A DNA stretch of 64,000 nucleotides. Origin: Onthophagus taurus (Eukaryota > Arthropoda > Insecta > Coleoptera > Scarabaeidae). Where the stretch lies: the NCBI RefSeq assembly GCF_036711975.1, contig NC_091976.1, positions 10,788,001 to 10,852,000 on the forward strand, in the 5' to 3' direction. Position numbers and translations under genes: made by a program. Below are positions 1,009-53,230 of this stretch, in pieces (position 1 is the first letter of the stretch; the number at the start of each line of letters is the position of its first letter). The notes beneath the pieces are model-generated. The model did not search any database. It saw nothing but the letters and a program-made list of their open reading frames with translations, and was not told the DNA's origin.

Positions 1009-1352
1009 TCAATCTGGGTAGATGTATTTATCCATGCCTATACGATATCTACCATCCTTAATTTCAAAGTCTTTCATTATAATTAATGGGTTATATTTAC
1101 CGTCGTTCCAACAGCGTCTACACATCTCTTTAAATTCTTCAAACCTCATATCGGTATTTACATGTTCGTCGTATACATGTTTCAAGTTCACCTCATCCAG
1201 CTTGAAAAGCACTAACACGTTAGCGTTATCCCGAATTAGATGTTTAGGTATACGCGTATAGGTCTGTGTAAGGTAGAAAGAGTCTACGTTTCTATGTCTA
1301 CCCATAGAAAAATACGGTCGAATTTTATCCTGCTTATCGTACGCCACATCTA
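1009..1352 (-). pseudogene. Packaging ATPase, C-terminal fragment
   Basis: Only the last 110 or so residues of the A32/FtsK-HerA-like ATPase remain (segment DKQDKIRPYFSMGRHRNVDSF to the end). The Walker A loop and Walker B strand present in copy B (36380-37120) are missing, because a deletion joins this gene tail-on to the protease fragment on the other strand. The reading frame runs on into protease antisense sequence to 1398 and has no viral start. The product cannot be an active ATPase. Confidence 0.88.
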
Positions 1353-1670
1353 AATATCCCAAAATTCCGCGGCGTCTATATGCGAAACGCATTACCAAAA
1401 GGGGGCCCTAAAACGGATGAAGCGGCGGTGGTGAATTTAGATGTACAAAGCGGAGATGGAACGCATTGGGTAGCCTATAGAAAATCCGGTAATAGAGTGT
1501 TCTATTTTGATAGTTATGGGGATCTCAAACCCCCCAAAGAACTTTTAAAGTACTTTAAAGACACTCAAATTATATACAACCACGATAATTATCAAAAGGA
1601 CAATCAGTACAATTGCGGGCATTTATGTATAAAATTCCTACTTCAAACGGGAAACGGGTCATATGTATAA
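1350..1670 (+). pseudogene. Adenain-like protease, 5'-truncated
   Basis: This is the protease of copy B (38038-38421) without its first 20 or so residues; those and the slippage site were removed by the deletion at 1350. The catalytic His (GTHW), the Asp region (YFDSYGD) and the catalytic Cys (YNCGHLC) are all still readable, as in adenovirus-type cysteine proteases that mature the capsid. With the upstream PLA2/core gene gone there is no obvious way to express it; the ATG at 1380 is internal to the domain. I therefore treat it as a pseudogene. Confidence 0.8.
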
Positions 1671-27014: not shown

Positions 27015-29424
27015 ATGAATTCCTCAGATTCCGATGAATGGGATGAATGGCTAATGGAAAATATTACTAATAAATACAAAAAATCGAAGCGCCGTTATTG
27101 GATGCGCACATTATACCAATCACGCGAAGAAGGGGAGTATAGAAAAACTTCTCTAAAGCTTCGAAATTACCCCGAGAAGTTTAGAGAGTATTATCGAATG
27201 GATATAGCTACTTATGATTATATTTTAAGAGCTATTTCTGAAGATATAAAACGATATTCAAATTTCAGACGGTGCATTGAACCTGGGGAAAAACTTACAA
27301 TATGTTTAAGCTAAGATAAATGTGTATATTTTTCTTGGACCTTATTTTCATTGTATGGATGTACCTTTTCTGAGGGTTTCGGGTTCTTTGTATGACTTAT
27401 TTAAAAAAAAAACAACATAAACTTTTTTTCTTAACGTTTCAATTCTTGACAAGGAGATTCTTCAGAGTAATTTATTAAGTATTTATTAAGAATTTATTAC
27501 ATAGTTAAGTTAAGTTATTACATAATTAATACAGTGCATAGTTACGAAATATTTATTTTATTAAAGTAACTTACATAACATAATGTAGGCATCTACAATC
27601 TTTAGGAACCTAGGAGCTCTAAGTTGGCAATGTAATTCTGTAAGTCAGACGATGTTTGTGAGTGTGGTTGATTTGGTTCTTCAGGTTCATCATTTATTGT
27701 TATAGAAGAACTTTGTGTTTCTTCGTGAGTTGGTGTTAAAATGTAATGAATTCGGCTGGAACATCTACTGCTTGCTGGAGTTGATGTTGACAGTAGGTTG
27801 CTATCGTTTTGGTAGGTTCCTTGGTTAATATTCTGAAGTTCTCGTGAGATAATATTAATAAACTCCATTCTCACTTTCATTTTTTGGACATCTGTAAATT
27901 TGCGAATGTGAGGAAGTATGCTTTTAAAAAAATGCATATCGTCATCGTCTTCTTGGTTTTGTGGACAAGCTCGTGCCCGAAGTTTTTGCTCAAACAATTT
28001 TACCTTTTTTTTTTCAATATTGATTACCTCATCTTGGAAACTGTTTCGTTTTCGTTTAGGTTTCTCAGATACTTTATCTATTATTTCCGAATCTGTTTCA
28101 ACAACATCCTGTGAGGTAACATTTTCCGCATTTATTGCGGAAACTTCGCTATTTGGGGAGTTTCTTGATGATGCGTCTAGTAAATCACGTGAAGAAGAGG
28201 CAGATGGGATATTTGTTGCAGTTTTTCTGGGTAATAAAACATCTTTCAGGAACAGCATATATTTGAAGTAGGGCCATTTACAATCAGCCTCAATGTATTC
28301 ATCATCTGCTTCTTGACCTGACTGAGTTGCGTTGACTTTTTTAAATTCTCTTCTAAACGTGTCGCGTAGAAGTTCCCACTGTTTTTTTGCTTGCTCGACT
28401 AAAAAATAACAAAGCTCATAAGGTACTTGCATATAAAGTTTATGCTAATAAATATTCAAATGGACACTGTTATTGCAATTATATTTTATTTTTCAGATAT
28501 TTTGCGACTGGCTTGTCATTTCGTTCGCTAGCATTCTCTTTCCGTGTTGATCATTATACAATTGGAAAACTTGTTGAAGAGCTATGTGATGCGCTTTGGA
28601 ATAAATTAAGTGCTACACACTTGGCAGTTCCTAATCAAGACGGATTTCGAAAAATCTCATCAAAATTCAACGCAAGATGGAATTTTCCAAATTGTGTAGG
28701 TTGCATCGATGGAAAACATATAGAAATAAAATGTCCACCAAAGTCAGGAACTATGTATTACAATTACAAACATTTTTATTCGATTGTTTTGCAAAGAGTA
28801 GCGGATGCAGATTGTCGATTTATTTTTATTGACGTGGGCTCTTATGGAAGACAAAGTGACGGAGGAACTTTTGCCATTTCTAACTTGTACGATTTTCTGG
28901 AAAATTACAATAATACTTTACCTCCACCTGCACCCATTCACGGAATACCCGATGATATGCCGTTTGTTTTGTTGGGTGACGATGCCTACCCGTTAAAAAC
29001 ATACTTAATGAAACCTTATTCAAAAAGGCAACTTACAAATCAGGAACGAATATTTAACTACAGGCTGTCCCGTGCAAGGAGATGTATCGAATGCACTTTT
29101 GGTATTTTATGTGCTAAGTGGCGCTTGTTAAATAAGGCCATTGAAACGGATGTAGAAAAGGCTATTAAAATTGTTAAAACAATTTGCTTATTGCACAATA
29201 TGGTTATGGATTTTGAAGGCTCTCCTAATATTGCAATAGCGAGACAAGCGCTTGAAATTTACAGAAATCGAAATCAAAATAATGTCATCAATAACGCTAG
29301 AAGAATTGGCAGAACATTTAATAATAATTCAAATGACGCAAAACAAATACGAGAAGACTTGAACCGATATTTTAATGCACCTATCGGATCCGTTTCCTTT
29401 CAAACAAACTGTTTAAATATCTAG
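27015..29424 (+). CDS. Harbinger transposase, two exons, donor site damaged
   Basis: Exon 1 (27015-27310) reads MNSSDSDEWDEW...FREYYRMDIATYDYIL...GEKLTIC. Exon 2 (28497-29424) begins at a TTTTCAG acceptor with YFATGLSFRS and has the DDE_Tnp_4 motifs VGCIDGKHIEI (Asp), LLGDDAYPL (Asp) and RRCIECTFGILCAKWR (Glu). The two exons join in frame (phase 2) to about 407 residues. At the donor, the base expected to be G is C (AG/CTAAGA instead of AG/GTAAGA), so splicing is probably lost and this copy may be inactive. The intron contains the large exon of the MADF gene on the other strand. Confidence 0.85.
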
Positions 29425-29753: not shown

Positions 29754-30293
29754 TTATCTGGTCTGATCTGGTCTGATCTGGTCTGAACCGGCGCCAGTGT
29801 AGCCGTAGCCTAAGCGTCTTGCCCGCTAGGCTACCGAAGGAAATGAGTTAAAAGTGTTTAAATAACGTTCAAGTAGAGATGACGACGGCGCTCATACGTT
29901 TATCAGCGGAAGCTAATCCCCCGCGGAGCGATGACGACAACGACGACGGCGACGACGACGATGACGTCGACGATCGTATGCTTATCAGCGGAAGCTAATC
30001 CCCCGCGGAGCGATGACTGAATTGAAATAATACTCACCTTAAAATAGGTTATTTATTATTATTATTGATTGATTGATTGACTGATTGATGGTAGGAGGAG
30101 GAGGAGGAGGAAGAGAAAATCACAAAAAATTAAAGTTAATACATATATTAAAAATTTAAATTTAAATTAAACATGCCCAAAATGATAAACATATGCAGAC
30201 AGCGCTTGTGATAACATCGATCAAAGTGCAGAGAATTTCGGCGACAAAAGATAGTAAACTATTTAAACATTTACCCATTGTGTAGCAGTTTAA

Positions 30294-30744: not shown

Positions 30745-30950
30745 GGAGACGGCGTCAACGATCGTATGCTTATCAGCGGAAGTTAATCCCCCGCGGAGCG
30801 ATGACTTAAAATATATTCTTTATTAGTATTATTGATTGATTGATTGATTGATTGACTGATTGATGGTAGGAGGAGGAGGAAGAGAAAATCACAAAAAATT
30901 AAAGTTAATACATATATTAAAAATTTAAATTTCAATTAAACATAATTAAC
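30745..30950 (+). repeat. Second copy of the inner TIR block
   Basis: The stretch from ACGATCGTATGCTTATCAGC to AATTTCAATTAAACAT repeats 29968-30174 in the same orientation, with a shorter (GGA)n run and a few differences. It precedes the gene at 30959 as the true inner TIR precedes the gene at 30294. Confidence 0.88.
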
Positions 30951-33245: not shown

Positions 33246-34184
33246 TTATGATATATCTTTATTTGATATCCAAGAATTATGGGATGAATCGAATCCTAAC
33301 CATTTTACGTACAACTTATCCTTCTTCCTCTTCAATACCTTTTCAACGAGGTAAACGTTGGGTTGAGCGGTCCTTTGAAGTTCGAATTCGTAAAAAGCGC
33401 CTTTAATCGGCTGGCCACGCACATCCTCCAATAAATATGAAATTGGATTTGTGATATTCACTTTAACGATTTTAAACAATTCGGCGGTCCAGTTGGGCAG
33501 ATATCCTTTATCAAACACATGTTTATATTTACTGATACGAACAGCGTCTCCAACTCTAAACTTTCCTCTGCCGGCAATTTTAATATGATTGTACACTGTA
33601 TCGAGAAGTTTATTCTCTACCGATTTCGAATTTATTTCAGACGGTTTCATTTTCGTAGTCGAATGTTTCGTACTGTTATATCGAGATGTTATATCCTCCA
33701 ATAGGTGCACCCATTTATGATTTCCATATAGACTGAAGAACTTGTAGATTCTTTGTTTAACGGTTCGAATTACACGTTCAGCCATCGACGCTTTCATAAC
33801 GCTATACGATGAAAAATGATTAATTTTAAAATCCGACATCAACCGTTTAAATTGACTGTTGTAGAACTCTTTGCCCTGATCGGTTTGTAGATTTCGAGGC
33901 GCGCGACCGTCGTCTGTGAGAATTGAGCGTAGCGCTGCGGTGACGTCCGTAGAATTTTTACTTTTTAACGGACGCGTCCAAAGAAACTTGGAGAAACAGT
34001 CTATAACCACTAATATATATTTATATCCGGAATTCAATCTGGCAAACTCAATCATTTCAATTAGATCCGCCTGCCATAGATCATCGATCCCCTTCAGGAT
34101 GGTTCTTCGTCTAGCGAAAATACGTCTAGCGGGGCGATGGAGCTCCTCCACAATGACACGTTTCGCATCTGACACCTTCTCCAT
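33246..34184 (-). CDS. DDE integrase with C-terminal chromodomain
   Basis: The 312-residue protein is a retrovirus-type integrase. The core runs from about 35 (WQADLIEM, first Asp) through VVIDCFSKFLW and TDQGKEFYNSQF (second Asp, about 101) to MAERVIRTVKQ (Glu, about 137). After an SH3-like segment (KFRVGDAVRISK) comes a chromodomain (VYLVEKVLKRKKDKLYVKWLGF...SWI, about 268-310). This is the Polinton integrase type (C. elegans relative F54H12.3). It inserts the element into the host, making the 6-bp duplication; the chromodomain may steer it to chromatin. The frame is intact. No HHCC zinc motif is seen before HRPARRIF, so the N-terminus may be slightly short. Confidence 0.92.
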   Translation of the reverse strand: MEKVSDAKRVIVEELHRPARRIFARRRTILKGIDDLWQADLIEMIEFARLNSGYKYILVVIDCFSKFLWTRPLKSKNSTDVTAALRSILTDDGRAPRNLQTDQGKEFYNSQFKRLMSDFKINHFSSYSVMKASMAERVIRTVKQRIYKFFSLYGNHKWVHLLEDITSRYNSTKHSTTKMKPSEINSKSVENKLLDTVYNHIKIAGRGKFRVGDAVRISKYKHVFDKGYLPNWTAELFKIVKVNITNPISYLLEDVRGQPIKGAFYEFELQRTAQPNVYLVEKVLKRKKDKLYVKWLGFDSSHNSWISNKDIS

Positions 34185-34192
34185 TGTGACAA

Positions 34193-35322
34193 TTAAGGTT
34201 TGAGACCAACCTTTTTCTCTAATATATCAAGTCGGGAAAATATAGCGGAATCCATGAGGTCAACTCGCGACTTTTGCGCACCGATCGACTGTCGTATATT
34301 CGATATGAGCGTATCAATCACCGATAGACGATTTGTAATGCGATTTAGATTTAAAGGTATATCGGTGTTTACCGTTTTAATTAGCGATGCGATCTGTCCG
34401 GTCTTAGATGGGTCTAATAAATTCGATACATCTTCGATATTCGATTTGTTAAGCTTTACTTGATTTAATAAATTAGTGAATTCCGTTTTAATTGCGTCCC
34501 CCAACTTTGTTAATCGATCGGAAAGTTGAGTTAAATCACCAGAGACGTCCTCGTAATTTCGATTAATAACATCTGTGAACTTTGCCGCCGCATTAGTTAA
34601 TTCGTTGGAAATTTCGGTAATTTTCACATCGCCAACATCAATTTTAGCATGCAGATTCTTAATATCGGATACCCAATGCGATTTTAAATTTAAAATCTGA
34701 TCCTCGATCGCTTCGATTGAAGGCTTTAAATTTCCGGAAACTTGCAGATCGATATATTTCTTGCTGGCATCAAATTCATCACGTAGGTTTGAATCTCCGG
34801 CGTAACTTGTTCGGATTTAATTTGCAAATCTTCAACACCCGATTTTAAATTTAAAATCTGATCCTCGATCGCTTCGATTGAAGGCTTTAAATTTCCGGAA
34901 ACTTGAAGATCAATATATTTCTTGCTGGCATTAATTTCATCACGTAGGGTTTCAATCACCGACGTAACTTTTCTGGATTTATCTCGCAAATCCTCAACCT
35001 CCGATTTTAAAGAATAATGAAGATTCCTATTGGCTCGCATTGTCCTACTTATTGAATCGAACATACGTTTATACTCCGTATCGTTTGTCTTAAACATCTC
35101 ATCTACATATGCTTTTATAACGCAATCGTTTTCTAACGATGGACTTTGTACATTACTAAGTTTACGTCCCTGCATATCATAATCCCCAGATGAGGTTAAC
35201 GGTAATCCAACCCCCCGCTGAGACGTTCCGGCTTCATCAATTATTCTACCCCATGAAGATGCGTGCAACGTACGTCCGAATTTATCGATACTGATAATAC
35301 TACCAACACCGCCTCCAAACAT
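34193..35322 (-). pseudogene. Fibre-like coiled-coil protein, frameshifted
   Basis: The N-terminal part (34726-35322) starts MFGGGVGSIISIDKFG, has a segment DYDMQGRKLSNVQSPSLENDCVIKAYVD like those in viral and phage tail-fibre heads, and then a long coiled coil. A 161/162-bp tandem repeat (units near 34681 and 34842) encodes about 54 residues of coiled coil twice; one unit lacks a base near 34785, shifting the frame, and the rest continues at 34193-34627 (heptads of Leu/Ile). It probably formed trimeric fibres or spikes on the virion (inference from shape). Position next to integrase is typical of insect Polintons. Confidence 0.7.
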
Positions 35323-36379: not shown

Positions 36380-37120
36380 TCAATCTGGGTAGATGTATTT
36401 ATCCATGCCTATACGATATCTACCATCCTTAATTTCAAAGTCTTTCATTATAATTAATGGGTTATATTTACCGTCGTTCCAACAGCGTCTACACATCTCT
36501 TTAAATTCTTCAAACCTCATATCGGTATTTACATGTTCGTCGTATACATGTTTCAAATTCACCTCATCCTGCTTGAAAAGCACTAACACGTTAGCGTTAT
36601 CCCGAATTAGATGTTTAGGTATACGCGTATAGGTCTGTGTAAGGTAGAAAGAGTCTACGTTTCTATGTCTACCCATAGAAAAATACGCTCGAATTTTATC
36701 CTGCTTATCGCACGCCACATCATCGAATATAAAAATTGAATTCTCCTTAGCTTCATTCGGATCCACTACGGCGTCATTATCGCTGAATCGATAGAATCCA
36801 ATTTCCGGAAGTCGATTCAAAACTAAACTTAAAAGTTCATATTTCGGTTGCCCCAGTGACTTTGAGTAAATGTAGATATTTTCGAATGTCAGACCATTTT
36901 CATCAAATATTAGATTCAAAATTAAATTTGTCTTCCCACAGCCAGAAGGTCCGCAGACAATTGCGCGTAAACTGTTGGGTATTAAATCGCTATGTCTACG
37001 CTTCGTCTCTGTTGCTGATACCAGTCGATCGAGATCAGTCAATGGCATAGTTATAGAAGGGTGTTTCACTACACGCATGTTGTCAAAAATTGACTGAGAC
37101 TCTAACGTACCTGCACGCAT
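36380..37120 (-). CDS. A32/FtsK-HerA-like genome packaging ATPase
   Basis: The 246-residue protein has Walker A IVCGPSGCGKTN (about 54-65) and Walker B SIFIFDDVAC (about 134-143, with the double Asp usual for Polinton packaging ATPases). A sensor-like QTYTRIPKHLIRDNANVLVLF follows. By family it pumps the viral genome into the capsid. The gene is intact here, reduced to a C-terminal stub in A, and missing in D. It is divergently placed from the PLA2/core gene at 37166; the 45-bp gap CTAACGTACC...ATATATAAAGG contains a TATA-like ATATATAAA near 37119-37127. Confidence 0.9.
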   Translation of the reverse strand: MRAGTLESQSIFDNMRVVKHPSITMPLTDLDRLVSATETKRRHSDLIPNSLRAIVCGPSGCGKTNLILNLIFDENGLTFENIYIYSKSLGQPKYELLSLVLNRLPEIGFYRFSDNDAVVDPNEAKENSIFIFDDVACDKQDKIRAYFSMGRHRNVDSFYLTQTYTRIPKHLIRDNANVLVLFKQDEVNLKHVYDEHVNTDMRFEEFKEMCRRCWNDGKYNPLIIMKDFEIKDGRYRIGMDKYIYPD

Positions 37121-37165
37121 ATATAAAGGTCCCGGTTATGTTTGAAATCGCATCACTTGAGAGTA

Positions 37166-38044
37166 ATGCTCGCTCAAGGTAACACATCAACAGTAGCTTC
37201 AATTCGAGGTGGAGGAATTTTAAATTCAATTATCAACAAACTCCCCGTAGAGTTACACATTCCTGGATATTAATTTTGCGGGCCCCGAACAAAGTTGGAT
37301 AAACGCTTGGCACGAGGTGAAAAAGGCATAAATCCGCTAGATCGCGCCTGTAGAGAACACGATATAGCCTATAGGGATAATAAAACATTAGATCAACGTC
37401 ACGAGGCCGATAGGCGTTTAGAGGATACTGCTTGGGACATGGTGAAGGCGAAAGACTCATCACTTGGTGAAAAGACTGCGGCGTGGTTAGTTACAAACGC
37501 TATGAAAGCGAAACGTAAATTAGGCATGGGGCATAAGCGTAAAGGTGGTGGTAAAAGCCGGCGAAAACGTCGAGGTGCATCATTGAAGTCGAAAAGTGGT
37601 GGTAAACAGGTGACCTTTCAAAAGGGGATAGTTAAGCGTATAGCAAATGATTTACCGAAAAACACCGATAGTTTACGAGAAGCGGCGCGATTGGCGTTGA
37701 AAGGTGCTCGCATAGCCGTAAAGTCTGTAGGCGGAAAGCGAAAAGTTAAAATTCCACGAACAATCCCAATTCCAGTTAAACGAGGAGGAATATTACCACT
37801 TTTACCTGCGATATTCGCCGGACTGTCAGCTCTCAGCGCACTATCCGGAGGCGCGGCCGGAGTCTATAGAGCAGTAAAGAAAACTCAAGAGGCGAAGGAT
37901 AAAATGAAAGAAGCTGAGCGGCACAATAAAGCAATGGAGGACATTGCGATCGGAAATACGGGGAGTGGTATTTACATTAAAAGGTATAAAAAGGGATTGG
38001 GTATATATTTAACGAAGAAGAAGAAGACTCAAAAAAACTTTTAA
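37166..38044 (+). pseudogene. PLA2/core protein with parvovirus-like phospholipase domain
   Basis: The frame opens MLAQGNTSTVAS, meets an in-frame TAA at 37271 (codon 36), then continues without change of frame through the PLA2 domain. The calcium loop reads FCGPRTK where the family has GPGT, and the catalytic His-Asp is in ACREHDIAYRD. After it come very basic stretches (KAKRKLGMGHKRKGGG..., KRRG) and a hydrophobic glycine/alanine segment (LPAIFAGLSALSALSGG), resembling adenovirus-type core or membrane-lytic proteins. In parvoviruses this domain helps the particle leave the endosome. The stop and the Gly-to-Arg change suggest loss of function. Its 3' end holds the slippage site for the protease. 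Confidence 0.85.
38032..38038 (+). promoter_or_regulatory. -1 ribosomal frameshift site A AAA AAC
   Basis: In the PLA2/core frame the codons are CAA AAA AAC TTT TAA, so the heptamer A AAA AAC sits in exactly the phase needed for simultaneous -1 slippage, two codons before the stop. After slipping, translation enters the protease frame (LLRLLPKRPLTNFDIL...), which has no ATG before the domain starts. The same heptamer in the same phase occurs in D at 54700-54706. No strong downstream stem was found by eye in this copy. Confidence 0.72.
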
Positions 38045-38421
38045 GGCTGCTACCCAAGAGACCTCTAACCAACTTTGATATACTACGTTACGCTAAATCT
38101 CTAAATATCCCAAAATTCCGCGGCGTCTATATGCTAAACGCATTACCAAAAGGGGGCCCTAAAACGGATGAAGCGGCGGTGGTGAATTTAGATGTACAAA
38201 GCGGAGATGGAACGCATTGGGTAGCCTATAGAAAATCCGGTAATAGAGTGTTCTATTTTGATAGTTATGGGGATCTCAAACCCCCCAAAGAACTTTTAAA
38301 GTACTTTAAAGACACTCAAATTATATACAACCACGATAATTATCAAAAGGACAATCAGTACAATTGCGGGCATTTATGTATAAAATTCCTACTTCAAACA
38401 GGAAACGGGTCATATGTATAA
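38038..38421 (+). CDS. Adenain-like cysteine protease (by -1 frameshift)
   Basis: The open frame from the slippage site reads LLRLLPKRPLTNFDIL and then RYAKSLNIPKFRGVYM. The catalytic triad residues are His in SGDGTHWVAY, the acidic residue in YFDSYGDLKPPKEL and Cys in YNCGHLCIKFL. Adenain-type proteases cut capsid and core precursors during maturation. The only ATG (38131) lies after conserved sequence, so expression as a C-terminal extension of the PLA2/core protein by -1 frameshifting is the best explanation; splicing is a less likely alternative. About 127 residues lie after the shift. It ends 2 bp before the minor capsid start. Confidence 0.85.
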   Translation, partial: LLRLLPKRPLTNFDILRYAKSLNIPKFRGVYMLNALPKGGPKTDEAAVVNLDVQSGDGTHWVAYRKSGNRVFYFDSYGDLKPPKELLKYFKDTQIIYNHDNYQKDNQYNCGHLCIKFLLQTGNGSYV

Positions 38422-38423
38422 CG

Positions 38424-39200
38424 ATGTCGCAGACGTTCACACTGGTTGGTACGAAGAGCGAAATTTCTGAGGAATACTTTCCACCTATACAATTGGATCC
38501 CAACTTTAACTATTCATTGGGACTGATTGGTTTGTACACATATAACAGCATACCCAACATTGAAGAGGGAGTTAACGATAAATTCCACTTTACAATAGTA
38601 AATCCCATCAATAAACAGCAGCAACAGCAGGGGCCTAAGAATACTTCAAAAGAGGTAATCGGAATTCCTACGGGCGTATACGAAATTTCAGATATTGAAA
38701 AATATTTGCAAAAGGAGATTCTACGGTTGGTCGGATTGGATAAGATAGATAGACCTGAGGCCCTATTGTCCCTCAAGGCTAATAACAATACGTTACAGTG
38801 CGAGATTAGCAGCGACTACTTGGAGATTGATTTCACAGAATCCGATTCGATTGCTTCGATTTTAGGATTCTCCCAACGTACACTGAAACCCGAACAATTA
38901 CACAGATCCGATCTCCCTGTAAATATAATACGCGTGACGTCCGTTCGCGTGGAGTGTAATATAATTTCCGGATCATATTACAACAATAAGCAGTCACATA
39001 CGCTATTCGAATTTGCACCGGCGGTAGATCCTGGCTTCAGTATAAATATAGAGCCTAGGAACCCAATATATTTCGCAGTCGACACCGATCGACCGATAAC
39101 GAACATTACCCTTAGACTCCTGGATCAGCGCGGTAGATTGGTAAACTTTCGAGGAGAAGAAATCGTAATTAGGTTAGAGCTGAAACGTGTTGCATTATAA
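38424..39200 (+). CDS. Minor capsid (penton-like) protein
   Basis: I start at the ATG at 38424 (MSQTFTLVG), which aligns with the D homologue's start, rather than 20 codons upstream. The 258-residue protein has LGLIGLYTYNSIPNIEEG, a glutamine run (absent in D), IPTGVYEISDIEKYLQ, DFTESDSIASILGFS, IIRVTSVRVECNII and FRGEEIVIRLELKR. The overall pattern is mostly beta, and the same protein occurs in D. Given its place between protease and major capsid it is the likely single-jelly-roll penton protein of Polintons; that is inferred from context. Intact here. Confidence 0.75.
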   Translation: MSQTFTLVGTKSEISEEYFPPIQLDPNFNYSLGLIGLYTYNSIPNIEEGVNDKFHFTIVNPINKQQQQQGPKNTSKEVIGIPTGVYEISDIEKYLQKEILRLVGLDKIDRPEALLSLKANNNTLQCEISSDYLEIDFTESDSIASILGFSQRTLKPEQLHRSDLPVNIIRVTSVRVECNIISGSYYNNKQSHTLFEFAPAVDPGFSINIEPRNPIYFAVDTDRPITNITLRLLDQRGRLVNFRGEEIVIRLELKRVAL

Positions 39201-39412
39201 TGGGATTTATGTTTGAAACGCCTGGTGGTGGTGGTGGAACCTATCGCCCACCACCACCATCACAGCCTACCTTGAAAAAGGGTAAAGGGTATAAATGTAA
39301 ACGTAAGAGAACGTCTAGATCAGTCTGCAGAAAGACTTCGTTGCGACCTGACAACGTTCGTTTCCTTCAAGATTTGGGGTACCATGTCAACAAAAAAATT
39401 AAACATTTATAG
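39200..39412 (+). CDS. Small basic glycine/proline-rich Polinton protein
   Basis: Seventy residues, one glycine longer than in A. It begins on the last base of the upstream stop (TAATG) and overlaps the major capsid gene by 29 nt in another frame. The Lys/Arg-rich centre with two Cys (CKRKRTSRSVC) suggests nucleic-acid contact. Confidence 0.72.
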   Translation: MGFMFETPGGGGGTYRPPPPSQPTLKKGKGYKCKRKRTSRSVCRKTSLRPDNVRFLQDLGYHVNKKIKHL

Positions 39413-40622
39413 AGATCCTATCGTGGATAATTCCATCGCTAGGGAAGAGGTGCACAGTTACCATCCTTCAACAAATTCGTTTCAAAACAACGATGTGTTC
39501 ACCATTGAACTGAACCAAGAAGATGTTTTATTTTCCTTTTTCGAGAGTTATATACGAATTGAGGGTAACTATGTTAAAAAATTGACGGATCCTGCAGATA
39601 GCATAAGTTTAACGCACAATTTGCCGGCATTTCTTTTTGAGTACATCGCATTCGAACATAATGGCGTTGAAATAGAACGTGTTCGTGAACCAGGGCTCAC
39701 ATCGCTAATTAGAACCCTTCTACACCATAACGATGTGGAATGTAAATCATTGGAAATTGCCGGGTTAAAATGGCCTCCTGAAGGAGCCTTACCCACGGTG
39801 GAGAGCGCAAACGATAACTTTGTATTTCAAATCCCACTTGTGCACATTTTTGGATTATTTAGAGACTACAATCAGGTTATGAGAGGTCGTTTCAAGTTTA
39901 GGTTTGTCAGAAGCCGCACAGATTCAAACTGTTTTAAATCTATATCGACTAAAGCCGACCCCAGCACTGCAGAGTTTACCATAAAGACAGTGTCATTACT
40001 GGCGAAGCATGTTTATCCCAGTCCATCGATAAAGATTAAACTTTTGGATGGGCTAAATAAAAATTCGAATATAGCCGTACCTTTTCGTAAATGGACGTTT
40101 TATGAATTGCCATCTATGAGACGGGGGAATAAAGAGATTTGGCCTGTTACATCAACTACTAACAGGGGTAGACCGCAATATGTTATAGTGGCATTCCAAA
40201 CCAATCGAAAGGATCAGCCAAAATCTGATTGTACGCTGTTTGACCACTTGAACATTATAGATCTTAAAGTCTATTTAAATTCATATTCCTACCCATTCGA
40301 GTCTATAAATTTGGATTTTACGAAGGAAAATTACGTTGAACTATATAAAATGTATACGGAATTTCAATCATACATTTGGGAATCTAACCGAAAACAACCG
40401 ATAATGGATTTCAACAGTTTCAAGAAAAGACCTCTATTCGTAATTGATACCACAAAGAATAATGATGAGGAGGCAGCGCCATCTGCATCATGTGAAGTGC
40501 GGCTTGAAATTCAGAGTGATAAAGATTTTCCCGCCAACACGAAGGCATACTGTATCCTAATACAGGAATCTATGTATACCTATAAGCCGCTGAGTGGGGA
40601 GGTCTCAATCGTTATTAATTGA
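39384..40622 (+). CDS. Candidate major capsid protein (F54H12.2-like family)
   Basis: 412 residues, intact, about 98% identical to the copy in A (2614-3852). The start MSTKKLNIYRD lies inside the preceding small gene. The damaged D homologue shares FEYIAFEHNGVEIER-type, PFRKWTFYELPSMR-type and FVIDTTK-type segments over the full length, so the whole chain is under common constraint. Length is short for a Polinton hexon, but no other candidate exists in the element. Confidence 0.72.
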   Translation: MSTKKLNIYRDPIVDNSIAREEVHSYHPSTNSFQNNDVFTIELNQEDVLFSFFESYIRIEGNYVKKLTDPADSISLTHNLPAFLFEYIAFEHNGVEIERVREPGLTSLIRTLLHHNDVECKSLEIAGLKWPPEGALPTVESANDNFVFQIPLVHIFGLFRDYNQVMRGRFKFRFVRSRTDSNCFKSISTKADPSTAEFTIKTVSLLAKHVYPSPSIKIKLLDGLNKNSNIAVPFRKWTFYELPSMRRGNKEIWPVTSTTNRGRPQYVIVAFQTNRKDQPKSDCTLFDHLNIIDLKVYLNSYSYPFESINLDFTKENYVELYKMYTEFQSYIWESNRKQPIMDFNSFKKRPLFVIDTTKNNDEEAAPSASCEVRLEIQSDKDFPANTKAYCILIQESMYTYKPLSGEVSIVIN

Positions 40623-41179: not shown

Positions 41180-41246
41180 GAAGTTGTTAAATTTTTTTTA
41201 ATACATATATTAACTTTTATTTATTGTATTTATTTTTGAATCCTTC

Positions 41247-42685
41247 ATGCATTCAGTGTCTGACCTCCATCACGCAAACATGTACATTGCGAGAGTTATT
41301 GTAGTATATACGCTCTGGGCGCTTCCAATACGAATTTTAATGGAAGATTTGATGTACGATAGGGATATGGAAATCTATAAATATCTCAAAGCATTTGGAT
41401 ATTTAAATGGGAATGTGAGCGGTTTACATCATCATCATCAGATGGGATATACAACAACAACAATGACGGAAGGGTTACGTAAATTGCAGGAATATTTTCA
41501 CCTGCCAGTATCGGGTGAAGTTGATTTTAAAACTTTGGATTTGATTGGTAAACCAAGATGTGGGAATAAAGACTTGGAAGACATATCAGTAGACGCTAAA
41601 CGTACGATACATCGAAAATTTTAGCTCACGCATACTATCCTTATATTAATGGACGTAATGTTGAAATCCACATAAATTCAGATTTAGAGTTTGATTTATC
41701 CAACTCTACAGTAGATGGGAAATATAACCTATTTTTGGTAATGGTGCATGAAATTGGACATTCCTTAGGTTTAATGCATCGAGTTGAACTCGATTCCATC
41801 ATGCATCCCAACTATGGTAACATGAGAATTGAGGATTTCAAGTTGAATAGCAGAGATATTGTGGCAATTCAAGCTGTATATGGTAGACCCAAATTGTATA
41901 CATCATCGACTGTTTCAAGTCACGTTACATCATCATATAGGACCACGACGAGTCGGTCTACGACAAATCCTGACGTTCAACCCTCACCCTTTAGAGACGT
42001 TTGTGATGTGGATTCAAAGCTTTCTGGTTTTTTGATTCACTATCAAACCATGTACGTGTTTTACAAACAATGGGTTTGGTTAATAGATTTAAAGTCTAAA
42101 CGACCTAAACAACCCAATCCTATAGACATAAATGATTGGCTGCCAACTTTGAGGAATGTTTTTCGTACTGTAGACTATAGTTATAAAGTGTCTATCTCGC
42201 CTATAGGTGACCTTATACTTATAATGGAAAATGCAATATACAGAATTGATTTTAAGAGTATGAATGTGCGGTCTGTGTGGCCGTTCACTTCCACCGAGTT
42301 AGGGTTTAATAATTTTACTCGAGTTAACGGGATAGTTACAAGCAATTACGGTTTACCTTACATATTTTTCGATGATATGTACGCAATTCAAGTGGATTTT
42401 AATTACTTTAGAAAGGAGAGAGTTATAGTTTCGATTGGTGAACTTTTTCCGGGAATCCCAACTTCTTTCAATGGGATTTACAAAGGTTCCGACGGCATAT
42501 TTAATTTCTTTGTTGGCGATCGAATCCTCCAATACGATGAATATTTAAAGGAGGTTGTAGGCACCTCTGACAAGAGTCTATCGATATTAGGGATAACTTG
42601 CCCCTATATATCAATTTTAGATCAATTGAAATCTCTCCTCTCAACAATCATTTCAACCAATCTCTCAATTCCCATAAATTATTGA
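41247..42685 (+). pseudogene. Matrix metalloproteinase, deletion copy
   Basis: Compared with the intact gene in A (4476-6134), 217 bp between the propeptide and catalytic motif are missing at about 41617 (equivalent to A 4850-5066). The deletion removes the start of the catalytic domain and shifts the frame; the first part ends at 41624 and the zinc motif HEIGHSLGLMH plus the hemopexin-like region continue in another frame from 41735. The cysteine switch PRCGNKD is still present. Not functional as an MMP. Confidence 0.9.
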
Positions 42686-43609: not shown

Positions 43610-46600
43610 ATGTTTCTTTGCAAAGTGTGTAACGGTGCGTTTACCTTAAAACACAATCTTACCCGACATATACGTTTGAAACACGGTGATGTGCGGGAAT
43701 CGAACTTTAAATGCAGTATCTGCGAAAAAGTTTATTCAAGATCCGACAAATTGAAACACCATCAAAGAAGCGTACATGGACTAGATGTTCCACGTTATGT
43801 TGCGCCGCCGCCGCCACCACTACCACCATCTTTACAAAGTACATCGGCCGGTCCGGTTGAACAGACGTCATTGCGTCATCCGCCTAAACAACAACCCTCC
43901 AACCCTTCATCAAGTACGTCAGCGGAGCCTGTTCAACATGTGTCATCAACATCATCACGTCCTTCACCTAAGCAGCGGCAACCCTCCAACTTATGTCCAA
44001 TTTGCGGTGTTGACTTTATATCTACCACTCACCTACGGACTCATCTAAGATTGGAACATGCGACCCCGGTCGAAGGTGAAGATAACGTCGATAGATTAGA
44101 ATCATGTTTTAAAGGTAGAGTTTGCACCTATAGAGTCGCAGACGTGTTGGTCGATGATGATATATCATTTCCTAACAAGATCAGAAGGAGCTGTTAAACG
44201 AATGATTGAGGTTAGTTTAGATCGCTGTGGTCCCTCTATAAAAGTTCAGATTGAGTTTTTTGCGAATTATGTTAAAGCCGCGTATGATGAAAATGGGGAT
44301 GAAGACGTATTAATGTCCGAGAAAAATTTTAATTGTAAATTTCAAGTTGTTTCGGTGGGTACGGATTTGCATGAGGTGTATGTTGGGATGTGTAGGGAAA
44401 TTTTAGCTCAAAGCGAAGAATTTCAAGAACGCGACTCTGGGTGGGCCTTCTTCTCCGTATCTCACCTCCTGCTTAATATTAATAAATTTGAACCTATACC
44501 CGGGTCATCGTATATACGTTTACCTCAGGTAATTGCTGAAAAACATGCGTGCGTAAATATTAAAAACTATGAGGACGATGCTTGTTTAGCGTGGTGTTTG
44601 ACGGCGGCTCTTCATCCCGCAAACCTTCATCAAGATCGAACTAGAAGCTACCCTCATTATAGTCAAGTACTTAATTTACAAGGGATTACATTTCCCATTA
44701 CTTTAAAAGATATCATTAATGTAGAAAAATTAAATAATTTAAGTATTAATGTTTACGAATTGTTAAGTAGTAGTAGTAGTAGTGGTAAATACGCGGTGGA
44801 AGGGCCAATTTATTTTACCAAACAAAGACGCGATATTCATATAAATTTGCTTTATTTATACGAAAACGGCAAGGGGCATTTCGTTTTACATTTCGTAAAA
44901 CCGATCGATTATTGTAAGCAGAGTAGCGCTAAATCTTTTACGGAAAAAATTGAGGAACATCAACCTTACAGTTTTGCTTATTACATTGTTTCCAATATTG
45001 ATAGCAGTTTAAATAGATTTGAAACGTATACGGGGCCGGATGCGCCTAAAATTTTTATCTCTAAATTAATTGATGATGTTAAATTACTTTACAGCAAATA
45101 CTTTAAAACTATAAAACCAATGATACCTTTAACGGCCGATGAGCAACGGCATTTCGATTCGGCCGAAAATAGTATTATTTGTCAAAATCCTTTTACTTCA
45201 AACCAGGTTAAGGTTCGTGATCATTGTCATATTAGCGGTAAATACCGAGGTCCCACCCATTCAAATTGTAATCTAAATTTCAAACTTCAAAATTTTATTC
45301 CGATATTTTTTCATAACTTTAGTGGGTATGATTGTCATTTATTTATTAAAGAAATGGCTGATGCAGACAAAGATGGGCTTGATGTGTTACCTAATAATAA
45401 AGAGAGATACATTAGTTTTAGTAAAAGAGTGTTGGTTGATAAGGTAATTAGCGAAGACAAATCTGTTGAAAATGTTTTCTTTAAATTAAGATTTGTTGAT
45501 TCATTTCGGTTCATGGCATCTTCATTAGATTCTTTAGCAGGTAACCTTAATGAGTTTGATTTTATTCACGTGCGTAAATTTTACCCACACAATGATTATT
45601 TTAAATTGTTGACCAAAAAGGGAATTTTTCCCTACGCCTTTATGTCATCATTTGATAGGCTTAATGCCACTTCCTTACCCCCTAAAGAGGCATTTTTTAA
45701 TAATTTAAATTTAGAGGGAATATCTGATGAGCAATATACCCATGCTCAAACTGTTTTATACTTAACCGATTTATACTTAAAGACCGATGTTCTTCTATTA
45801 GCTGATGTATTTGAGAAATTTAGACGAGTATGTTTCAAAACGTACGGTTTAGATCCCGCGCATTATTATACGGCACCGGGGTTATCTTGGGATGCTATGC
45901 TAAAATTTACGAAAATTAAATTGGAATTGTTGACGGATATTGATCAAGTTCATTTCGTTAAAAAAGGTATCCGTGGGGGCATTTCACAATGCTCTCTACG
46001 TCATGCTAAAGCAAACAATAAATATATGGAAAATTATGATGCTAATTCACCTTCAAAATTTTTAATGTATTGGGACGCTAATAATTTGTATGGGTGGGCA
46101 ATGTCTCAATTTATCCCCGTTTCCGACTTTAAATGGTTGACTGAAAACGAAATTCAAAATTTAGATTTTAATAATACAGCCGATGATTACGATTTCGGAT
46201 ATATTTTAGATGTGGATATTGCGTATCCCGAACACTTGCACAACCTGCATAATGATCTACCTTTCTTAGCCGAAAATTTAATCCCCCCTAACTGTAAATG
46301 TGAGAGCGATAAACGATTAATTCCAAATTTATTTGATAAGACAAATTATGTAATTCATTACAGAAATTTAAAACAAGCCGTTGCACACGGATTAATTATA
46401 AGTAAAGTAAATAGAGTTTTATCGTTTAAACAATCCCCTTGGTTAAAGTCATATATAGATAAAAATACAGAGTTACGTCAATCGGCTAAAAATGATTTTG
46501 AAAAGGATTTTTTTAAATTAATGAACAACGCAGTTTTCGGTAAAACCATGGAAAATGTTGATAAGCGAGTCGACGTCCGCTTAGTAACCAGTTGGGACGA

Positions 46601-47342
46601 TATCAGGTCTGACAAAAACGCAGGTAGACCTAGACTTGGAGCTCGGAGTTTAATCGCTAAATTAAATTTTAAAAGTGTTAAAGTATTCACAGAAACGTTT
46701 TCGGCAATTCAAATGGAGCGTCTTCATATCGTTTACGATAAACCTCTATACGTTGGTTTTACAGTTTTAGAACTCTCAAAATTATTAATGTACGATTTTT
46801 ATTATGATTTTTTAAAACCTAAATACGGCGAGGACGTTCAGTTGTGTTACATGGATACCGACAGTTTCACCGTACTAATTAAGTCTGACGATGTGTATAA
46901 CGATGTTAAATTAAATTTAGATAAATTTGATACATCTAACTACAGTCCCGATAATCGGTTTGACATCCCCTTGCAAAATAAAGCGGTTTTAGGTAAGATG
47001 AAGGATGAAAATTGCGGAAACGTAATGGTCGAATTTATTGGCTTAAGATCGAAGGTGTACGCAAATCGGGTTGCTGATGGGCGGGTTACTAAAAAATCTA
47101 AAGGTATTAGGAAAGCTGTGGTTAAACAAAAGCTTTCATTTCAAAATTATTTCGACTGTTTACATTCAAATTCCATCGTGTCTAGAAAACAGTTATTATT
47201 TAGAAGTTTTAACCACACGGTTTTTACCGTTTTACAAAACAAATTGGCCCTTTCCCCACACGATTCAAAGCGATGTATCGATGCCGATGGTATTAAAACA
47301 TTGGCTTGGGGTCATTTTACAACTATTTCGAATAACGTTTAA
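43610..47342 (+). pseudogene. PolB with zinc fingers, frameshifted and lacking Exo I
   Basis: The first frame (43610-44197) holds the two N-terminal C2H2 fingers and a third finger. A 2-bp loss near 44167 shifts it; the rest runs in one frame from 44154 to 47342. Relative to A, about 280 bp around 44889 are gone, removing the fourth finger and the Exo I motif, and a smaller in-frame loss precedes Exo III. Exo II (FHNFSGYD), Exo III (LKTDVLLLAD), motif A (DANNLYGWAM), motif B (MNNAVFGK), motif C (YMDTDSF, about 46848) and the C-terminal LRSKVYAN and KKSKGI segments remain. The proofreading exonuclease is lost and the chain is split. Confidence 0.9.
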
Positions 47343-47389
47343 ATATATTTAAGTAGGTTAAGTAGAAAATAGTATGATTTTATTCGAGT

Positions 47390-48306
47390 ATGTTTAATTT
47401 AAATTTAAATTTTTAATATATGTATTAACTTTAATTTTTTGTGATTTTCTCTTCCTCCTCCTCCTCCTCCTACCATCAATCAGTCAATCAATCAATCAAT
47501 AATAATAATAAATAACCTATTTTAAGGTGAGTATTATTTCAATTCAGTCATCGCTCCGCGGGGGATTAGCTTCCGCTGATAAGCATACGATCGTCGACGT
47601 CATCGTCGTCGTCGCTGTCGTCGTTGTCGTCATCGCTCCGCAGGGGATTAGCTTCCGCTGATAAACGTATGAGCGCCGTCGTCATCTCTACTTGAACGTT
47701 ATTTAAACACTTTTAACTCATTTCCTTCGGTAGCCTAGCGGGCAAGACGCCCGACTCTCAACCAGACAGCCCGGGTTCGAACCTGAGCGTTGGCAAAAAA
47801 AAAAAAAAAAATTTATCCGACCGTTAGGGCACTAGAGCGTTATCCCCTATCGTAGGGGGAGGCTTGGGGTTGAAGCGGGGTAGTAGGAAGCCATTAGGGC
47901 GCTAGCATGGGGTTGAAGGGGGTGATGGGGTTGAAGGGAGCCAATATGGCACTAATAGGGGTTGATGGGGTTGAAGGAGGCCAATAGGGCACTAACATGG
48001 GGTTGAAGGGGTTGAAGGGAGCCAATAGGGCACTAACATGGGGTTGACGGGGGGATGGGGGTTGAAGGGCCAATAGGGCACTAACATGGGGTTGAAGGGT
48101 CCATTAGGGCACTCACATGGGGTTGAAGGGGGATGGGGGTTGAAGGGCCAAAAGGGCACTAACATGGGGTTGAAGATGACACCGGAAGTGACAAGATACC
48201 GGAAGTGGGATGACACCGGAAGTGGGATGACACCGGAAGTGACGTCATGGGGGATTAGGGGGATGGGGATTGACTTCCGCTCCAGAACCGGCATTTATTA
48301 TCTACT
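47390..48306 (+). repeat. Right TIR of Polinton B
   Basis: The inverse of the left TIR, uninterrupted. From inside: (TCC)n, (TCAA)n, two GCTCCGC(G/A)GGGGATTAGC blocks joined by a GTCGTC-rich spacer, the tRNA-like segment (47729-47795), 17 A, the G-rich array, four ACCGGAAGTG motifs (48179-48243) running into TGACGTCA, and the outer end. Left and right TIRs are nearly identical, which points to a recent insertion or to end homogenisation during replication. Confidence 0.94.
47729..47811 (+). other. tRNA-like segment with perfect A box in right TIR
   Basis: TAGCCTAGCGG matches the pol III A-box consensus at every position, and GGTTCGAACC at 47774 matches the B box; GCGTTGGC and an oligo-A run follow. 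The clover-leaf does not close (T-arm and anticodon stems mismatch), so I read it as a tRNA-derived SINE head fixed in the TIR. Confidence 0.6.
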
Positions 48307-49252: not shown

Positions 49253-52200
49253 GGAAAAGTTTTCCATCGGTGAGGAGACGAATCGAGCCAGTGCAGCACC
49301 ACCATTGAATCGGACCATGCGAAGATCTCAGGTTGAACGATACCGGAGATATTTAATAAGATAATAAGATGAATTTCACCATATTAGCCAACAGGACGGC
49401 GCCACAGAGTTCCAGTCGAGATAACGAAATAGTTTTTAGCGGAGCTACTCTAGACTTGGCACAAATCAAACTGACACTAATATTGTTATTAGGCAAAATG
49501 TATCGAAGGTACGCCACCGCACAGTACCCAACCGAAGATGCATCAGAAAACAGATGGAGCTCAACGTGTAAATCTTTAGCGGGAAGAATTAGCCTGGGAA
49601 TCTTCAACTGTGACAACATTGGGATTTGAAACTGATATTGAGTCCAATAATTTTGAATTTCCTCGGAAGGGAGATCGTCCCAATTCAATTTTTCTAACCA
49701 TAATCGTTGCATGAGGCATTTTGCAGCGAGAATACATGGCGTAATTAAACCAAGGGGATCAAAGATGCGTGCGATATTGGATAATATAGCCCTTTTACTG
49801 CAGAGGTGATCACGAGGTTGATAAGAGAACTCAAAATTGTCGTTATATTGCTCCCACTGGAGACCCAGAACCTTGACGACACCATCTTCTCTATTATCTA
49901 ATGATACCAGTTTTACACGAAGATCGGCACTAACGTTTTTTAATAGTTTAGGTTCGTTACTTGCCCACTTAGCTAACTTAAAACCAGCCAACAACATAAT
50001 GTTTATAATTTGATTTTGCAAGTCCAACGCGTCACGAACCGAAAAACTTCCCGTCACAACATCATCAACGTACATGTCGTGTAATAATACGCGGGAAGCT
50101 TCAGGAAATTGTGCTGCATTAAGTCGCGCAAGCTCTTGGATAGTACGCAAGGCCAAGTACGGAGCAGAAGAAACTCCGTAGGTAACGGTATTTAATTGGT
50201 ATTCATTAAGTTCACCACTTTTATAATCTCTCCATAAGATGCGCTGATAATCGCGATGATGAGGAACGATTAAGATTTGTCGATACATTTGTTGAATGTC
50301 ACACATGAAGGCAATCGGGTAACATCGAAACTTGATTAGAATTGAACTTATATCGTTTTGAAGTTTGGGACCAGGCAACAAAAGATCGTTCAACGAATTT
50401 CCGGTAGAAGTTTTTGCAGATGCATCAAAGACCACACGGAGTTTGGCTGAGGTATTAAGGTCATAATGATGAGGGATATAATAAGCGTTCTTGTTGTGGT
50501 GATCTTCTTTGCTAATCAGAGACATGTGGTTCTTTAGAAGATAATCGTTCATAAATTCCTTGTACTTCTTGAAAATTTCAGAATTCTTAATCAACCTTTT
50601 TTCTAAGTATATGAAACGTCGCAGCGCCTGGGAATATGATTCACCTAATTCTAGGTTAGTATTTTTAAAGGGTAGAGCTACCATAAATCGACCATCAGCG
50701 GTACGGCTGTGCGTTGATATGAAGTGATTCTCGCTTTGAGTATCTTCTAGAGTAACTGGAGTAGTTTCTTTTATCTGTTCAAGCTCTCAAAACTTCTGAA
50801 GGCAGACGTCAGTCGATGGTTCAATCAAAAGTGACAATTGAGATATTGGAGAAGGTAAATCAGCGGATTTTCCCATTAAAAGCCATCCGAAAATTGATCC
50901 CAAAGCTGCCGGTTCATTCATGGCACCAGCACGACGATCACCAGTGAGGATATAAGGGACCAGTTCAGCTCCCAATAGTAAATCAATAGGTCCTGGTAAT
51001 GTTTGGGTTTTATGAATGACGAGATCTTGTAAATGTGAATACTTAGAAACATCAACGGCTACAGTGGGATGAGTTGAGCATATGCGTTGACTTATGACAG
51101 CTGTGAATCGTAGTATAGGTTGGTACACATCGCATGGTTTAACATAACATTCAACGGAGCCTTTATTGCAAATAGAAGACATGCTGTTCAAGCCCTCAAT
51201 GGGTACAGAGTGAACACTTCGAACAAGTTGGAGTCGGTTTTGAAGGTCTTCTGGGATGAAGTTGATCATGCTGCAAGAATCGATCAAAGCTCTTACTCTA
51301 TGGTATCTTCCAAAACGGTCTTGGATGTCCAACTCAGCAACAGGTAGAAGAACTGTCATAAATGTATTAGTTACAGAGGCGACAGTATTTTTAGGAATTG
51401 ATGAACTGACGTCGGGTGCAGTTGTATCATGTGAAGAGCTGTTAAAATGTAACAGTGTATGATGACGTCTGCGGCAAACTCGACATGTTTTATTGGAATT
51501 ACATTTACTGGTAGTATGGCGATAGCCCAAGCAGTTTTTACAAAATTTATGATGGGAAATGAATTCGAATCTTTGCGAAGGTGTTTTTTCTAGAAACTTT
51601 TCACATTGATATAAATTGTGATTATATTGACATAAGATACAATTTAAATTCGATTTAATTTCAGTAGTAAAAGTTGATTGAATCTGTCTCGTAATTAATT
51701 TGCTCCCTTTTGCAGAAGAAGTCAGCTTAACTGAATCTAAGGCTTTCGATTGATTCTCTAAAAATTCCATTAATTGCTTATAAGTTGGAATTTCAACATT
51801 ACTGTGTTCTACTTCGAATTTGGTCCTGATTGAATTATCCAATTTTTGTAGAAGTATATTAAATAACATAAAATCCCAAGACTCAACCGGGAATCCTAAA
51901 GTTTTTAAACCTTCAACGTTTTCAGAGAACGTATCAATTAACAGCCGATACGCTTTTGATGAACCTTCTTGTTTTATTGTGACACATTGAATTTCGTTGT
52001 AATATAATGTAGCTAAATGTCTCTTATTTTGGTATCTCTTTTTTAAGGTGTCGAAAGCAATGGAGTAGTTTGCATCAGTCATAGGCAACCCTTTGATAAG
52101 GTGTAAGGGTTCTCCGGATAATGAGGTCACAAGGTACTGATATTTCGCAACGTCGGATAAAGTATCGTTATCGTGCACCAAGGATCGGTATAAATCGTAG

Positions 52201-52661
52201 AAACTCGGCCAAGATTTGTAATTTCCAGAAAAAATGGGAATGGTGATTTTATTTAACTTCGGTGATACAACGGATTTGACAGGATCTTGTGTGTCAGGAT
52301 GGGAAGGGGTGATTTTATGTAAAGTGGCTTTGGTACGAAAGTAAGCAACTTCAGCTTTACGACGTATAGCATCATGAGTATCGAAAGCTTCTTCTTCAAT
52401 GAGACCAATTATTTGATTATGAAGAGTTGTAAATTCGGTGTAAGTGTCGTCAATTTCAGAAGCGCGTGCAATAAAAATCAATTTTAAATCCGCGGATTGG
52501 TCAATGGTATCAACAGCACCCGCCGTTTCAAGGAGGCTGTTTAGAAGACCGTTACGGCGTAATGTTAATCTAGTGAGCTTATCAGGTAGGGCCATAATAA
52601 ATTTAAAGGAAAATAATAAATCAAAAAAATTTTCGAATAAGAGATTTATATAACAACCCAA
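49253..52661 (-). pseudogene. BEL gag-protease-RT polyprotein, broken
   Basis: Gag (50787-52661; the internal ATG reading MALPDKLTRL is the likely start) has a DUF1759-type region (IPIFSGNYKSWPSFYDLYRSL), CxxC zinc knuckles (CKNCLGYRHTTSKC, CRVCRRRHH) and an A17-type aspartic protease site (ALIDSCSMINFI). After a frame break near 50700-50790 comes RT (49353-50684) with FMCDIQQMYRQI, YGVSSAPYLA and the catalytic YVDD, then RNase H start (LFSDASSVGYCAVAY). The RNase H (WSDSMVVLHWL) continues in a shifted frame to about 49253. At least two frameshifts and loss of integrase. Confidence 0.85.
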
Positions 52662-53230
52662 AATCGTCGACCTTGTAAACGAAAATTCGCAAACACCAGA
52701 TGTGAAGCGACAAAGAAAGGCAACAAGCTATCTCGGAACTGGACTTGAATAACTGCAAATAAATTGACGCGAGAAATTGGCGTAAGAAAAAAAAAGAAAT
52801 GAAATAAAGTACACGTGAATTAAATTTAGAATAATCCGGCTCGAAGGACCAAAATTTGTTCGTACCAAAAGGGTCGAACCTAAAAACAGGTGCTGGTAGC
52901 GAAGTAAAAAAAAATGAGTAATAAATGAAATTGTATTAATAAAACAAAAAATAAACTTATAATGTGATTAATGGGCAAAAATGAAAGATAATAAAGAAAA
53001 TTAACAAAAATAATTATACATACGGTGAATGCGGTGTGAAAGGTGCGGTATGAAAGATGCGTGAGTCGAGCGAGCGGGTAATGCAGCGACGAAGTGATAT
53101 GCGCGAGCAATACATGCGGAATACATAAAATCACAAAATTCATACAAAATCTCGATCGATGCGCGATCGATTGCGCGTGAGCGAACAGTGGTATACAATT
53201 TGTATCGTGTTTTCATTGAAGTTTCCAAAT
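49253..53230 (-). mobile_element. BEL/Pao LTR retrotransposon, truncated
   Basis: Reading leftward there is a probable 5' LTR and leader (about 52680-53230), gag-protease (to 50787) and reverse transcriptase/RNase H to about 49253, where it breaks off; integrase and 3' LTR are missing. On the minus strand TTTGGTCCTTCGAGCCGGAT (52830-52855), a motif common in the leader of insect BEL elements, precedes gag. The exact LTR ends cannot be fixed with only one LTR. It lies between Polintons C and D. Confidence 0.82.

What the first reader, a model, noticed from the sequence alone, without database searches (positions are those of the whole stretch)
38026..38421. Protease expressed by -1 ribosomal frameshifting in a Polinton
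The adenain-like protease has no ATG before its conserved start. The last codons of the PLA2/core gene are CAA AAA AAC TTT TAA; A AAA AAC is a canonical -1 slippery heptamer in the correct phase, and slipping joins directly into the protease frame (LLRLLPKRPLTNFDIL). This would make a core-protease fusion at a fixed ratio, as retroviruses do for Gag-Pro. I am not aware of this being described for Polintons or adintoviruses.
Basis: partly seen in the sequence, partly recalled or inferred. Interest (0 to 1): 0.88.

Follow-up and report, generated by a model that had tools for sequence, protein, structure and literature searches.

The report
Frameshifted protease in beetle Polintons
In virus-like Polinton elements of a dung beetle genome, the capsid-processing protease has no start codon of its own and appears to be made by the ribosome slipping back one base at the end of the gene before it, the trick retroviruses use for their protease, seen here in a DNA element.

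Summary
In detail: the PLA2/core gene ends CAA AAA AAC TTT TAA, A AAA AAC (38032-38038) is in the right phase, and the adenain-like protease lies in the -1 frame with no ATG before its conserved start. The host genome (Onthophagus taurus by NCBI names) holds many divergent Polinton families. Of 90 protease loci examined, 81 have an in-phase slippery heptamer at this junction, mostly A AAA AAC, T TTT TTA in one group. Of 13 representatives 12 have one, 1.7 expected. Of the 120 listed core relatives, 114 end in Lys-Asn, always after an NNA-capable residue. The protease is under purifying selection; a distant IMG/VR contig has the same layout. Against: the window copy has a stop early in PLA2; its family shows no downstream RNA structure; one family has a stop-start overlap with ATG, as some relatives may; around a wasp protein only 58 of 109 newly listed relatives keep the Lys-Asn end. 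No expression data. A 2024 preprint mentions possible slippery Hexon-Adenain fusions; my searches found nothing on PLA2-protease. Best reading: -1 frameshifting makes a minor core-protease fusion.

The parts
38032..38038 (+). slippery heptamer A AAA AAC, in phase with the core frame
   Evidence: conserved
38042..38044 (+). zero-frame stop TAA of the PLA2/core gene, one codon after the heptamer
37166..38044 (+). PLA2/core gene (PF08398); in this copy broken by an in-frame TAA at 37271-37273
   Evidence: Pfam E 4e-07 on 37274-38041
37990..38421 (+). -1 open frame holding the adenain-like protease (read from 38038 after a slip); no ATG before the conserved domain
   Evidence: fold model and PDB matches
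36380..37135 (-). packaging ATPase (Pox_A32-like)
38424..39200 (+). ORF directly after the protease, at the penton position (position recalled); no Pfam match
39390..40622 (+). major capsid protein, double jelly-roll (PF21738, E 2.4e-62)
33246..34226 (-). rve integrase; chromodomain match below Pfam cut-off
44100..47342 (+). long ORF at the PolB position (PolB by recalled motifs only; Pfam gave Endonuclease_7 below cut-off)
29814..30181 (.). left terminal inverted repeat, 368 nt, 99% complementary to the right one
47383..47750 (.). right terminal inverted repeat

Best explanation
In this group of insect Polintons the maturation protease is translated as the C-terminal extension of the PLA2/core protein. 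Most ribosomes stop at the core stop codon, 0-5 codons after A AAA AAC in the host-genome families (13-15 codons after T TTT TTA in the group that uses it), and make core protein. A minority slip back one base at the heptamer and continue into the protease frame, giving a low-level core-protease fusion. Shown by sequence: frames, heptamer, phase, conservation, lack of ATG, purifying selection on the protease. Inferred: that ribosomes slip, how often, and that the fusion both limits the protease dose and carries it into particles on the core protein. By analogy with adenovirus, whose protease is activated by the C-terminal peptide of pre-pVI (PMC8537868, passages), the fused core tail may also act as a tethered cofactor; this is speculation.
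For: Right heptamer, phase and stop in the window. 81 of 90 host-genome loci carry an in-phase heptamer before the domain: 54 A AAA AAC alone, 20 with T TTT TTA, 5 with G GGT TTA (4 of them also A AAA AAC), 1 A AAA AAA plus A AAA AAC, 1 (L066) A AAA AAA only; in 73 of the 81 the zero-frame ORF is still at least 100 aa. 12 of 13 representatives, 1.73 expected; overlap as short as 10 nt in L071, just holding the heptamer. Lys-Asn is invariant at the end of eight aligned core proteins, each NNA AAA AAC, although AAC is 35% of Asn codons there: chance 0.097 each, 7.7e-9 for eight, or about 8e-7 by my arithmetic for the six groups they form. 114 of 120 listed relatives end in Lys-Asn within 8 residues (4.7 expected), 114 of 114 after an NNA-capable residue (P 1.6e-10). 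8 of 11 protease pairs have dN/dS 0.09-0.18. Distant element L079. Adenain fold. A_AAA_AAC is among the most shifty heptamers on mammalian ribosomes (PMC5009743, passage of section 31).
Against: No expression, ribosome-profiling or proteomic data. No significant downstream hairpin in the window family (L011 z +0.5 to +1.1), and of nine representatives tested by a crude H-type pseudoknot search only L039 gave one; a strong hairpin only in L047 (z -5.7). L050 has an ATGA stop-start overlap and no heptamer. Around P0185 only 58 of 109 newly listed core proteins end in Lys-Asn. L066 has its long core ORF in another frame. Core-protease fusions in one frame occur (3 of 90 loci; P0241, P0252, P0308; P0069, P0077, by eye). 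Of the other three dN/dS pairs two are saturated and one, with damaged L077, is 0.62.
Confidence: 0.84

Rival explanations
1. Termination-reinitiation or another start next to the core stop: ribosomes that finish the core gene restart in the -1 frame, at an ATG overlapping the stop (ATGA) or at a non-AUG codon.
For: L050 has an ATGA overlap at the domain start. Contig-length-matched pairs P0130/P0084, P0201/P0032 and P0348/P0064 suggest the same elsewhere (inferred from proteins). 77 of 120 listed protease relatives begin close to the domain start.
Against: No ATG near the stop in the window family; apart from three one-frame copies, an ATG at or upstream of the domain start in 3 of 90 loci. 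Does not explain why NNA AAA AAC is kept in phase against a variable background or why T TTT TTA stands in its place in one group.
Confidence: 0.08
2. Transcriptional slippage on the A6-7 (or T7) run gives a share of mRNAs with the two genes in one frame.
For: The same runs would serve; both mechanisms yield the same fusion.
Against: The run is only six A in L047, L053, L064 and L071, and the C after it is kept, which a homopolymer mechanism does not need. Run lengths needed for such slippage are recalled, not tested.
Confidence: 0.04
3. Splicing gives the protease a leader exon with its own ATG, or joins core and protease in one frame.
For: Some NCBI core models are labelled isoform X1 or X2 (P0123, P0164).
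Against: P0123 ends at the Lys-Asn stop; splicing does not explain the conserved heptamer. No transcript data were available and splice sites were not searched for.
Confidence: 0.03
4. The protease is a pseudogene or starts at an internal Met.
For: The window copy is damaged in PLA2.
Against: dN/dS 0.09-0.18 in 8 of 11 family pairs; an internal start would remove helix 12-21 and strand 27-32 of the model.
Confidence: 0.01

Closest known systems
Retroviral gag-pro -1 frameshifting (use of A AAA AAC there is recalled; shiftiness of the heptamer from PMC5009743, passage)
   Same: Structural protein upstream, protease in the -1 frame, same heptamer, stop just after, presumed minor fusion.
   Different: dsDNA Polinton, papain-like adenain fold instead of aspartic protease, no downstream structure seen in the window family; not a retrovirus.
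Adintovirus Penton alternative C-termini and 'Hexain' Hexon-Adenain fusions predicted with KnotInFrame (PMC11071296, section 16 read)
   Same: Related viruses; a slippery sequence proposed to fuse a virion protein to adenain.
   Different: Upstream gene there is Hexon (or Penton with an alternative end), here PLA2/core; no conservation test is given in the section read.
Adenovirus adenain with its pVIc cofactor (PMC8537868, passages)
   Same: Same fold class; the activator comes from the C-terminus of a minor virion protein.
   Different: Adenain is translated as its own protein and takes the peptide from pre-pVI; here a minor virion protein would be fused to the protease.
Sf Maverick CAP (PLA2) and PRO genes (PMC5803895, passages)
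   Same: Same two genes in insect Mavericks.
   Different: Described as separate ORFs; no ribosomal frameshifting mentioned in the passages seen.

Membership tests
-1 programmed ribosomal frameshift site | X XXY YYZ heptamer in phase with the upstream frame | tested here: met
-1 programmed ribosomal frameshift site | downstream frame in -1 register, overlapping, without its own start codon | tested here: met
   window; apart from three one-frame copies an ATG at or upstream of the domain in 3 of 90 loci; L066 has the core in another frame
-1 programmed ribosomal frameshift site | conservation of the site across related sequences beyond chance | tested here: met
   weaker around P0185
-1 programmed ribosomal frameshift site | downstream stimulatory hairpin or pseudoknot | tested here: not met
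   not seen in the window family; strong in L047, moderate in L067, L064, L039. Usual but, as recalled, not obligatory, so membership stays a prediction
-1 programmed ribosomal frameshift site | measured frameshift product | not testable with these tools
   needs reporter, Ribo-seq or proteomics
adenain-like maturation protease | adenain/ULP1-type fold | tested here: met
   model pLDDT 85; ASFV pS273R 6ljb E 1.7e-4, Ad2 protease 4pie E 2.0e-4
adenain-like maturation protease | Pfam Peptidase_C5 above cut-off | tested here: not met
   13.1 bits against 21.3
adenain-like maturation protease | invariant His and Cys in a conserved order | tested here: met
   H60, D75, C110 invariant in the 8 aligned sequences; catalytic role assigned by analogy
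Polinton/Maverick | rve integrase, A32-type ATPase, double jelly-roll capsid protein, adenain-like protease | tested here: met
Polinton/Maverick | terminal inverted repeats | tested here: met
   368 nt, 99%
Polinton/Maverick | protein-primed PolB | tested here: inconclusive
   long ORF with motifs recalled as PolB; no PolB match in Pfam at E 0.01

The most novel reading that the evidence does not exclude
-1 frameshifting into the maturation protease is the ancestral and common expression strategy of insect (perhaps animal) Polintons: a DNA-virus counterpart of Gag-Pro in which the fused C-terminal tail of the core protein both delivers the protease into the particle and serves as its tethered pVIc-like activator, later bypassed in some lineages by an ATGA stop-start overlap.
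Probability: 0.35. Interest if true: 0.88.

Novelty: new variant of a known kind. Interest (0 to 1): 0.78.

Why it matters
It gives a testable expression mechanism for a Polinton gene whose start ordinary gene callers cannot annotate; such a start may be one reason why proteases are missed or shortened in annotations (inference). It extends the retroviral logic of a virion protein fused to its protease at a low ratio to a lineage of double-stranded DNA viruses, and it offers a translation-level signature (conserved frames and heptamer) that these elements are, or recently were, under selection to make particles.

Tried and rejected
Viral-contig scans with the window protease and A1 gave nothing; A2 gave L079; further scans with the L079 protease, two ATPase alignments and two near-identical DNA patterns only returned the same contig. 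Genome contigs gave nothing. Two more host-genome searches with metagenomic proteases were again filled by the same large families. Hairpin and crude pseudoknot searches found no stimulator in the window family. Considered and set aside: internal Met start, pseudogene, transcriptional slippage, and splicing (the last not testable here). Two Pfam calls failed for wrong coordinates (done correctly). Papers not held: Starrett 2021 and Kapitonov and Jurka 2006. In passages of PMC10120064, PMC8363768, PMC12567637 and PMC4028283 I saw no protease frameshifting. That PLA2-protease frameshifting is not in print rests on searches in the open library only, several with listings cut at 20.

Full report
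What is there. The window lies in a genome of 290.8 Mb that NCBI names on P0123 and P0126 place in Onthophagus taurus; the contig length given for P0126 equals that of contig C11. It holds a Polinton between inverted repeats 29814-30181 and 47383-47750 with integrase, ATPase, PLA2/core, adenain-like protease, double jelly-roll capsid gene and a long ORF at the PolB position. The core gene ends CAA AAA AAC TTT TAA; A AAA AAC is at 38032-38038. The protease frame is -1, open from 37990, without an ATG before PLTNFDIL. This copy's PLA2 gene is broken by an in-frame TAA at 37271-37273, so the window copy is a witness to the architecture and probably not a working example.

The protein. The protease model (pLDDT 85) matches ASFV pS273R and adenovirus protease best, while Pfam Peptidase_C5 stays below its cut-off. 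Helix 12-21 and strand 27-32 precede or reach the first Met, so an internal start is implausible. Of 11 compared pairs 8 have dN/dS 0.09-0.18; two are saturated and one, with the damaged L077, is 0.62.

Comparison inside the genome. A protease search scored 150 of 268 candidates, all 150 matching, at 49-100% identity. I examined 90 loci (L009-L078 and L084-L103), chosen to favour divergent hits and not at random. In one search, 81 have an in-phase slippery heptamer before the domain; in 73 of these the zero-frame ORF is still at least 100 aa. The other nine: three one-frame copies (L022, L051, L084; two were fetched with their long open frame in view); L050, without a heptamer but with an ATG overlapping the core stop TGA; L023, L043 and L091, truncated at the 5' side; L097, degenerate; L103, with the heptamer but a stop soon after it. 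The 81 include L066, whose heptamers are all-A and whose long core ORF is in another frame. Apart from the one-frame copies, an ATG at or upstream of the domain start occurs only in L050, L056 and L064; the fetched siblings of the last two lack it. One group uses T TTT TTA, and the L047 group adds G GGT TTA. Of 13 representatives (L066 left out), 12 have a heptamer in the overlap against 1.73 expected; by the 75% clustering they fall into ten groups, nine with a heptamer, so the P value of 4.5e-11 overstates independence. In eight aligned core proteins Lys-Asn is the invariant end of an otherwise variable tail; with local codon use, NNA AAA AAC in all eight has chance 7.7e-9, about 8e-7 by my arithmetic if only six groups are counted.

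Comparison outside. L079, an IMG/VR contig whose protease matches at 40% identity to the first sequence of A2, has a 207-aa ORF ending AAA AAA AAC CCA GAG TTT TAA and the protease in the -1 frame with its first ATG inside the domain; I did not test whether that ORF is a core homologue. Among the best 120 of 1539 core relatives, 114 end in Lys-Asn (4.7 expected), and all 114 have before it a residue that allows an NNA codon. A deliberate counter-test around a wasp protein without this ending, P0185, listed 120 of 2180 relatives, 109 of them new: 58 of 109 end in Lys-Asn, 57 of 58 after such a residue; of the other 51, 37 have KKK in the last 25 residues. All together 172 of 229. Of 120 protease relatives shown out of 3294, 21 extend upstream through KKL[LIV], the -1 reading of the slip site, but behind an apparent start; 77 begin close to the domain start. 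Gene callers may write M for GTG or TTG. So the frameshift layout is general among the relatives nearest to the beetle families, mixed around the wasp protein, and stop-start overlap is a live alternative in some lineages.

Structure. Downstream RNA folding is unremarkable in the window family, strong in L047 (z -5.7 at 50 nt), and moderate at one length each in L067, L064 and L039; L079 shows none. A crude pseudoknot search of nine representatives gave only L039. A_AAA_AAC is among the most shifty heptamers on mammalian ribosomes (PMC5009743, passage), so a low rate without a stimulator is plausible; the rate is unknown.

Reading. Most ribosomes make core protein, a few make a core-protease fusion. 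That would tie protease dose to core protein and bring it into particles. Adenovirus protease is activated by the C-terminal peptide of pre-pVI (PMC8537868, passages); a fused core tail as a built-in activator is an untested extension. Literature: PMC11071296 (section 16 read) suggests slippery sites in adintovirus Penton and possible Hexon-Adenain fusions; ten searches of the open library showed nothing on PLA2-protease frameshifting in what was listed, and two key papers were not held.

Noticed in passing
window 41214-42685 +: Matrix metalloproteinase-like gene inside the Polinton, in two ORFs in different frames: a PG_binding_1 prodomain, then a partial Peptidase_M10 domain. No in-phase slippery heptamer seen at that junction (by eye); perhaps a damaged captured host gene.
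   Followed up: partly
window 1341-1667 +: Second protease fragment of the same family, 96% identical over residues 19-127, truncated at its 5' side (L023).
   Followed up: partly
host genome G000: High Polinton load: tens of near-identical protease copies of one family on many contigs.
   Followed up: partly
L067, L062, L073: The group with T TTT TTA has a short core ORF of about 150 aa; no PLA2 part is seen upstream in the three frames read of these loci (by eye).
   Followed up: partly
L047: Strong predicted hairpin 9 nt after A AAA AAC, plus a second heptamer G GGT TTA upstream: the strongest candidate for a classic frameshift signal among the loci folded.
   Followed up: partly
window 28357-29424 + and 49353-52727 -: Flanking ORFs look like a PIF/Harbinger-type transposase and a BEL/Pao-type retrotransposon (by eye; families recalled).
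   Followed up: no
window 30839-30945: Additional partial inverted-repeat copy next to the left terminus, suggesting nested or rearranged ends.
   Followed up: no
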